DNA of 64,000 bases. Source: Myxococcales bacterium (GTDB lineage: Bacteria > Myxococcota_A > UBA9160 > UBA4427). The notes under the pieces are model-generated. The model was given only the letters and a program-made list of their open reading frames with translations. It did no database searches and was not told where the DNA came from. Location of the stretch: the NCBI GenBank assembly GCA_012959805.1, contig DUCN01000062.1:62409-126408 (forward strand). Direction: 5' to 3'. Made by a program: the position numbers and the translations under genes. This document shows, one piece after another, positions 53,046-54,003 of the stretch. The stretch's first letter is position 1, and each line of letters opens with the position of its first letter.

Positions 53046-53222
53046 ATGACTCCAGGATTTGATCCGACCGAGATCGTCGCTTGTGCGATTCGGCCAACTG
53101 GCAGTTGGAGCCATCTGGGTTCTCTGATTGGTTTCGTCGTGGCTGCTTGGTTTTTTTTGCCACGACGCTCTCAGCGCCGCGCGCGGGACGGGGCCTTCAA
53201 TCAGGCCGGAGGGCCCTCGTGA
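53046..53222 (+). CDS. Small putative single-TM protein (58 aa)
   Basis: ATG after GACGGGGGTGATTCG; MTPGFDPTEIVACAIRPTGSWSHLGSLIGFVVAAWFFLPRRSQRRARDGAFNQAGGPS*. Confidence 0.4.
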   Translation: MTPGFDPTEIVACAIRPTGSWSHLGSLIGFVVAAWFFLPRRSQRRARDGAFNQAGGPS

Positions 53223-54003
53223 CTTTCAATGCGTCGTCCAGAGCGGCCACGTCATGGGTACGCAGAAACGCTGCACCCTCGACGGCGGCATGAAGTTCTG
53301 CCGCGAGCGTGGCCGCGCTGATGCGGTCAACCTCCCGGCCAGTGATGGCGCGCAGAAACGACTTCCTCGACACCGAAATGAACACCGGTCGACCGAATCG
53401 TGCTTTCAGCTCTGGGATTCGCTGAAGGACGGCGATCGAGGCTTCGGGATTTCGGCCGAGGAAGAATCCCATTCCCGGATCGACGATGAGTCGGTCCTCT
53501 GCAACGCCAGAACGGACGAGTTCTGTTAGTCGGCGGTCGAAAAACTGATCGATCGAGGTGAGGACATCCGCCGTGGTAGCTTCCGTCCGCTCTGCTCGTT
53601 CGCTTTCGAGCAGCGAATGCACGACGACGAGATGGGCCTTGCTATCGGCGAGTCGTGAGTGGAGAGCCGGATCTGGAAATCCTCGAATGTCATTTAACAT
53701 CGCAACGTTTGATTCCATCGCAAACTCGAGGACGGCGGAGTCTGTCGCGTCGATGGAGATGGGCCGTTCGCAGCCTTTGACGTCACCCAGAACCTGCGCG
53801 AGTCGCTTGATTTGCTCTGCCGCGGGTACGTGCTGGGCATCGGGGTTACTCGAAGCGGGTCCAAGTTCGAGGTAATCCGCCCCATCGAGTGCCAGCTGGC
53901 GCGCATGCGCGATGGCGTCTTCGGGGCGTAGGAACTGGCCACCGTCCGAGAACGAATCCAGGGTGATGTTGACGATTCCAACGATTTGCGGCGGGCTCTT
54001 CAC
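53197..54003 (-). CDS. folP: Dihydropteroate synthase, Sul (sulfonamide-resistant)-like
   Basis: GIVNITLDSFSDGG; LELGPASSNPDA; LNDIRGFPDPAL; DPGMGFFLG; SVSRKSFLRAITG; AATLAAELHAA; RTHD - Sul1/Sul2-type signatures. Confidence 0.92.
   Translation of the reverse strand: MKSPPQIVGIVNITLDSFSDGGQFLRPEDAIAHARQLALDGADYLELGPASSNPDAQHVPAAEQIKRLAQVLGDVKGCERPISIDATDSAVLEFAMESNVAMLNDIRGFPDPALHSRLADSKAHLVVVHSLLESERAERTEATTADVLTSIDQFFDRRLTELVRSGVAEDRLIVDPGMGFFLGRNPEASIAVLQRIPELKARFGRPVFISVSRKSFLRAITGREVDRISAATLAAELHAAVEGAAFLRTHDVAALDDALKVTRALRPD

What the first reader, a model, noticed from the sequence alone, without database searches (positions are those of the whole stretch)
53197..54003. Chromosomal Sul-like (sulfonamide-resistance-type) dihydropteroate synthase
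The product lacks the canonical DHPS DIGGESTRPG loop and carries LGPASSNPDA instead. It also has LNDIRGFPDPAL, DPGMGFFLG, SVSRKSFLRAITG and AATLAAELHAA, which I recognise from the mobile Sul1/Sul2/Sul3 enzymes. The FF(L)G segment sits where Sul enzymes carry their extra residues in the pABA/sulfonamide pocket. No mobile-element genes are visible in the 64 kb, and neighbours are ordinary chromosomal genes. This could be a naturally sulfonamide-insensitive DHPS close to the ancestral pool of mobile sul genes, or the resident folP of this lineage.
Basis: partly seen in the sequence, partly recalled or inferred. Interest (0 to 1): 0.82.

Follow-up and report, generated by a model that had tools for sequence, protein, structure and literature searches.

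The report
Resident Sul-type folate enzyme (DHPS)
This bacterium's only dihydropteroate synthase, an essential folate enzyme, is of the same type as the plasmid sulfonamide-resistance enzymes Sul1-3; it sits at a new chromosomal site while the lineage's original gene is missing from its usual place, so the resistance-type enzyme appears to be the normal housekeeping one here.

Summary
In detail: window 54003..53197 (minus strand, GTG start, 268 aa) encodes a DHPS with the Sul signatures LGPASSNPD and DPGMGFFLG, including the two-residue insertion absent from canonical FolP. Its best solved relatives are Sul2 (53% identity) and Sul3 (50%); the AlphaFold model matches Sul3/Sul2 at TM 0.96/0.94. 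In trees built without the motif columns it lies in a Sul-type clade separate from all canonical FolP (100/100). It forms its own fully supported branch, outside the Parvibaculum branch that holds Sul2 and the branch that holds Sul3, so it is not a demonstrable donor of mobile sul genes.

It is the resident folP. No other true DHPS was found in its genome (the second hit is MetH-like), HPPK is present, and neighbours are conserved in the genus. Relatives keep canonical folP between ftsH and cdaA. In 19 of 19 examined genomes with Sul-type folP that slot is empty; in 11 of 11 with canonical folP it is filled; at least five switches are needed on the linked-gene tree. Sul-type folP has displaced native folP repeatedly in this phylum (named relatives: Myxococcota).

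Sulfonamide insensitivity is inferred from the published Phe-Gly mechanism, not shown. Chromosomal Sul-type FolP was described in 2019; this is a new member.

The parts
53197..54003 (-). folP of Sul type (dihydropteroate synthase, 268 aa, GTG start at 54003)
   Evidence: ORF; TIGR01496 over cut-off and Sul2 best-scoring profile; Sul2/Sul3 best PDB hits; Sul-type clade 100/100
53839..53865 (-). loop 2 LGPASSNPD (residues 47-55), Sul form in place of canonical VGGESTRPG
   Evidence: alignment against Sul1-3, E. coli FolP and the family's canonical FolPs
53455..53481 (-). pABA-pocket segment DPGMGFFLG (residues 175-183) with the two-residue Sul insertion
   Evidence: alignment; modelled as a short four-residue helix 179-182, as described for Sul alpha6 (PMC10328974)
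53464..53466 (-). codon of Phe180, equivalent of Sul2 Phe179 (the sulfa-discriminating Phe)
   Evidence: residue table; mechanism from PMC10328974
53338..53376 (-). SVSRKSFLRAITG (residues 210-222), holds Lys214 and Ser215 (Sul2 Lys213, Ser214) that contact pABA
   Evidence: K214 and S215 invariant in 40 relatives; roles from PMC10328974
52509..53024 (+). conserved neighbour ORF of 171 aa (no Pfam family), kept next to folP in the genus
   Evidence: shared ORF family in L039, L040, L041; no Pfam hit
54338..55330 (+). fatty acid desaturase, conserved neighbour in the genus
   Evidence: PF00487; shared ORF family in L039-L041
55327..55686 (-). Rieske [2Fe-2S] protein, conserved neighbour in the genus
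   Evidence: PF00355; shared ORF family in L040, L041

Best explanation
The gene is the functional, sole dihydropteroate synthase (folP) of this genome. It is a Sul-type enzyme, the group to which the mobile Sul1-3 belong, that was acquired horizontally by an ancestor of the genus at an unrelated locus and took over folate synthesis, after which the native ftsH-linked folP was lost. It joins DHPP and pABA to 7,8-dihydropteroate in the ordinary way. Because it carries the extra residues with Phe180 in the pABA pocket, it should admit pABA but clash with the ring substituents of sulfonamides, making the organism intrinsically sulfonamide-insensitive. Shown by computation: Sul-type membership, insertion, absence of folP from its usual slot, single DHPS found, conserved site in the genus. 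Inferred: catalytic activity, sulfonamide insensitivity, the order of acquisition then loss, and horizontal transfer as the route.
For: Sul signatures and insertion. NCBIfam DHPS equivalog passed. Predicted structure pLDDT 90.4 with best PDB matches Sul3 TM 0.96 and Sul2 TM 0.94. Sul-type and canonical clades separate at 100/100 with the motif columns removed, under two models. Only two Pterin_bind places in the own genome, this one and a MetH-sized frame of 1238 aa; HPPK present. In the own genome ftsH is followed by cdaA with no gene between, whereas relatives have folP there; 19/19 Sul-type genomes lack it and 11/11 canonical ones have it, with at least five switches on a tree of the linked genes. 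Neighbourhood conserved within the genus. Gene GC 60.1% against 58.6 +/- 1.9% for other long ORFs, so no foreign composition. Parvibaculum and Leptospira enzymes of this type gave sulfamethoxazole resistance in E. coli (PMC6335563), and the Phe mechanism is established (PMC10328974).
Against: No assay. The assembly is about 90% complete, so a second folP on a missing piece cannot be excluded for this genome alone, although eight other genomes of the genus agree. Direction of replacement (gain before loss) and horizontal transfer are inferred from patchy distribution and tree conflict; deep paralogy with differential loss is not formally excluded. Many of the 19 plus 11 genomes are close relatives of one another, so the count is not 30 independent cases; five switches is the minimum.
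Confidence: 0.87

Rival explanations
1. A recently acquired clinical-type sul gene that travelled on a mobile element and sits in the chromosome as a resistance gene beside a canonical folP.
For: Same broad clade as Sul1-3; 53% identity to Sul2 and 50% to Sul3.
Against: Far below the Sul1-4 family cut-offs (282.5 against 575 bits for Sul2). No mobile-element families seen in the scanned window ORFs. Same site and neighbours across the genus. No canonical folP. No plasmid record at 60% identity or more in the 5,000 best.
Confidence: 0.02
2. The Sul-type enzyme is an ancient paralogue kept alongside canonical folP in the phylum's ancestor, and lineages later lost one or the other; no horizontal transfer into this genus was needed.
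For: Deep split of Sul-type and canonical clades; strict mutual exclusivity fits differential loss.
Against: No examined genome keeps both; the Sul-type genes of genus g1 and of genera g3/g6 sit at different loci and branch apart; a member of another family (G058) falls inside the query's own clade, and Sul-type genes appear in distant phyla (Sporomusa, Streptomyces, Alphaproteobacteria), which many parallel losses would have to explain.
Confidence: 0.15
3. An ordinary FolP that merely resembles Sul by convergence at a few motifs.
For: Catalytic residues are shared with all DHPS; convergent Phe-Gly insertion in E. coli FolP is documented (PMC10328974).
Against: Clade membership holds with motif columns removed (100/100); identity to Sul2 53% against about 28-36% to E. 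coli FolP and the canonical FolP of its own family.
Confidence: 0.01
4. Sul-type enzyme used for folate synthesis, but not sulfonamide-insensitive in practice (the insertion serves another purpose, such as pABA affinity or exclusion of a different natural analogue).
For: No binding data here; about 4% of the Sul-type sequences fetched replace the key Phe by Tyr, His, Asn, Leu or Val, so the frame is not tied to it.
Against: Phe180, Met178 and Leu182, the residues linked to discrimination in Sul enzymes, are all present; two chromosomal relatives of the type conferred resistance in E. coli (PMC6335563).
Confidence: 0.1

Closest known systems
FolP with Sul motif (chromosomal folP of Rhodobiaceae such as Parvibaculum lavamentivorans and of Leptospiraceae; PMC6335563)
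   Same: Chromosomal, resident, two-residue insertion, same signatures, same clade; no canonical folP alongside here.
   Different: Different phylum, different genomic site (not next to glmM), separate fully supported branch; here the vacated ancestral slot between ftsH and cdaA can be seen. Leptospira sequences themselves were not in my tree.
Sul2 (PDB 7s2j/7s2k)
   Same: 53% identity, same insertion, Phe, Met and Leu in the pocket, same fold (TM 0.94).
   Different: Mobile, nests inside Parvibaculum FolP; the query scores 282.5 bits against the Sul2 cut-off of 575.
Sul3 (PDB 8scd/7s2m)
   Same: 50% identity, same insertion, TM 0.96.
   Different: Mobile, in another branch with Spirochaetia-, Prevotellaceae- and Sporomusa-labelled proteins.
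Canonical FolP (E. coli; the lineage's own ftsH-linked folP)
   Same: Same reaction expected; core catalytic residues kept.
   Different: No insertion, GGESTRPG loop, separate clade, different locus.

Membership tests
Dihydropteroate synthase (TIGR01496) | Score above curated cut-off, full length | tested here: met
   229.8 against 162.6 bits, residues 6-264
Chromosomal FolP with Sul motif (Sanchez-Osuna 2019) | Two-residue insertion in the R171-N211 region of E. coli FolP | tested here: met
   DPGMGFFLG against DPGFGF--GK
Chromosomal FolP with Sul motif (Sanchez-Osuna 2019) | Groups with Sul1-3 apart from other FolP without using the insertion | tested here: met
   100/100 split, motif columns dropped
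Chromosomal FolP with Sul motif (Sanchez-Osuna 2019) | Confers sulfonamide resistance | not testable with these tools
   Needs enzyme assay or expression; only residue identity at Phe180, Met178, Leu182 shown
Chromosomal FolP with Sul motif (Sanchez-Osuna 2019) | Resident single-copy folP | tested here: met
   Only other Pterin_bind hit is a 1238-aa MetH-like frame; assembly about 90% complete
Donor lineage of mobile sul1/sul2 (Rhodobiaceae type) | Sul2 or Sul1 nests with it | tested here: not met
   Sul2 nests in Parvibaculum, 100/88 to 100/99; Sul1 unresolved
Donor lineage of mobile sul1/sul2 (Rhodobiaceae type) | Gene followed by glmM | tested here: not met
   Neighbours are an unnamed ORF, desaturase and Rieske; glmM is on contig C78 with ftsH and cdaA
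Mobile Sul2 (NF000295) | Score above curated cut-off | tested here: not met
   282.5 against 575 bits
Sul4 type | Closest to Sul4 profile | tested here: not met
   89.9 against a 600-bit cut-off, weakest of the six
Canonical FolP | GGESTRPG loop and no insertion | tested here: not met
   LGPASSNPD and insertion

The most novel reading that the evidence does not exclude
Sul-type DHPS has spread by repeated transfer through environmental bacteria, each time replacing the native essential folP, because natural pABA antagonists (not drugs) select for it; the mobile sul genes are then late captures from a large standing pool.
Probability: 0.2. Interest if true: 0.8.

Novelty: new member of a known kind. 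Interest (0 to 1): 0.45.

Why it matters
Chromosomal Sul-type enzymes were tied in 2019 to two families, Rhodobiaceae and Leptospiraceae. Here they are the resident enzyme in several lineages of another phylum, with the native folP cleanly missing each time. This shows that a resistance-type enzyme can serve as the only copy of an essential enzyme for long periods, enlarges the reservoir of sul-like genes, and gives a set of matched lineages with and without the switch in which the cause (natural pABA antagonists or something else) can be studied. It also warns that sul-like hits in environmental metagenomes can be housekeeping genes.

Tried and rejected
Scanning genome contigs with the protein gave only two canonical FolPs (Chlorobiota, Planctomycetota). 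A weak second DHPS match in several genus members was checked as a possible canonical folP and rejected: it is a divergent DHPS-like paralogue (DPNLGI in place of DPGMG, about 100 bits against a 162.6 cut-off), absent from the own genome, and also present in a relative that keeps canonical folP. Two phylum members found at E below 1e-45 (L097, L098) turned out canonical by motif and tree. Sul4, recently reported in Myxococcota of sludge (PMC12772301), was considered and rejected: Sul4 is the weakest profile match. Literature searches for Sul-type FolP in Myxococcota found nothing, but the library holds open-licence papers only. Leptospira FolP could not be obtained for the tree. The branching order among Sul-type branches is unresolved, so I make no claim on which is closest to the query's.

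Full report
Observation. Window 53197-54003, minus strand, is one open frame of 268 codons with a GTG start. All motifs it quoted are there. The protein passes the DHPS equivalog model (TIGR01496, 229.8 bits, cut-off 162.6); its best-scoring NCBIfam profile is Sul2 (282.5 bits), then Sul3 (263.2), far below their curated cut-offs of 575 and 475 and so not a clinical allele. Among solved structures the first hits are Sul2, Sul3 and Sul1, ahead of every FolP.

Anatomy. Aligned with Sul1-3, E. coli FolP and the canonical FolPs of related genomes, the query has the two extra residues in the pABA segment (DPGMGFFLG against DPGIGF--GK) and the LGPASSNPD form of loop 2 in place of VGGESTRPG. Phe180 is the counterpart of Sul2 Phe179; Met178 and Leu182, also linked to discrimination, are present, as are Lys214, Ser215, Asn12, Ser17, Phe18 and Ser52 (residue roles from PMC10328974). 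An AlphaFold2 model from 40 relatives has mean pLDDT 90.4 and places residues 179-182 in a short helix, as described for the extended alpha6 of Sul enzymes. Foldseek puts Sul3 (TM 0.96) and Sul2 (TM 0.94) first.

Tree. With the insertion and loop-2 columns removed, 90 sequences split into canonical and Sul-type clades at 100/100; a second tree of 59 rows under a site-heterogeneous model agrees. The query lies in a 26-row branch (100/100) with its genus, one genome of another family of the same order (G058) and environmental proteins, some labelled Myxococcota bacterium by NCBI. Sul2 lies inside Parvibaculum and Parvibaculaceae (100/88, 100/97, 100/99). Sul3 lies in another branch with Prevotellaceae-, Sporomusa- and Spirochaetia-labelled proteins (100/96). 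Sul1 is unresolved. The order of these branches is not resolved. So the query is a member of the Sul-type group but not of the donor branch of Sul2 or Sul3.

Resident folP. The whole genome (4.46 Mb, about 90% complete) has two Pterin_bind places: this gene and one in a 1238-aa frame, the size of cobalamin-dependent methionine synthase; a frame of this kind recurs in nearly every genome examined. The MetH identity is inferred from length and recurrence. HPPK is present. Gene GC is 60.1% against 58.6 +/- 1.9% for long ORFs of the window. In three other genus members the gene is flanked by the same families: an unnamed ORF, a desaturase and others.

The vacated slot. In relatives with canonical folP the order is ftsH-folP-cdaA-ybbR-glmM (names inferred from the sequences). 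In the own genome (G000 contig C78) ftsH is followed by cdaA with no gene between. Over 31 genomes in which both flanks could be read, the 11 with canonical folP have 840-989 bases between the ftsH and cdaA matches, with folP inside; the 19 with Sul-type folP have 9-211 bases and no folP; one genome (G046) has neither. On a tree of FtsH, CdaA, YbbR and GlmM the Sul/canonical state needs at least five changes, and the query's genus is sister to a canonical group. For the two most distant genomes (G115, G279) the ancestral position of folP is less certain. In the phylum sample, 25 of 386 genomes match at E below 1e-45, 23 of them Sul-type by motif.

Mechanism. The enzyme most likely makes 7,8-dihydropteroate as any DHPS does. 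The Phe in the extended alpha6 should exclude sulfonamides while admitting pABA, as shown for Sul1-3 by structures, mutants and a laboratory-evolved E. coli FolP (PMC10328974). Chromosomal relatives from P. lavamentivorans and L. interrogans conferred resistance in E. coli (PMC6335563). Activity and insensitivity of this protein are inferred.

Novelty. Chromosomal Sul-type FolP is known (2019), and hundreds of DHPS records with the GFF motif were noted in 2023. New here are the lineage, the vacated ancestral slot, and the strict mutual exclusivity with repeated switches. I file it as a new member of a known kind. The organism's name is not given by the tools; Myxococcota is read from NCBI labels of near relatives and is not proven.

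Noticed in passing
L035:2821-3600 (-), L036:3486-4274 (+), L038:2952-3797 (-), L037:546-1373 (-): A divergent DHPS-like protein of about 260-280 aa (DPNLGI in place of DPGMG, YAARKPE in place of SRKSF) occurs in most members of the genus and in one canonical relative, but not in the window's genome; it fails the DHPS cut-off (about 100 bits against 162.6). Function unknown.
   Followed up: partly
L081, P0293 (Sporomusa ovata), P0345 (Streptomyces), P0258, P0260, P0272, P0273, P0275, P0318, P0320, P0326, P0338, P0348: Some 14 of 368 fetched Sul-type sequences replace the sulfa-discriminating Phe by Tyr, His, Asn, Leu or Val while keeping the insertion; natural test cases for what the insertion does without Phe.
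   Followed up: partly
genome G046 (family f12), locus L107: About 95% complete genome with an empty ftsH-cdaA slot and no DHPS found at all, only the MetH-like hit.
   Followed up: no
genome G000 (own), whole: No DHFR_1 (PF00186) match in the own genome or in G005, though all other relatives examined have one; incompleteness or another reductase.
   Followed up: no
48669-51191: One 840-aa frame with two matched stretches of CoA-transferase family III, apparently two domains in tandem.
   Followed up: no
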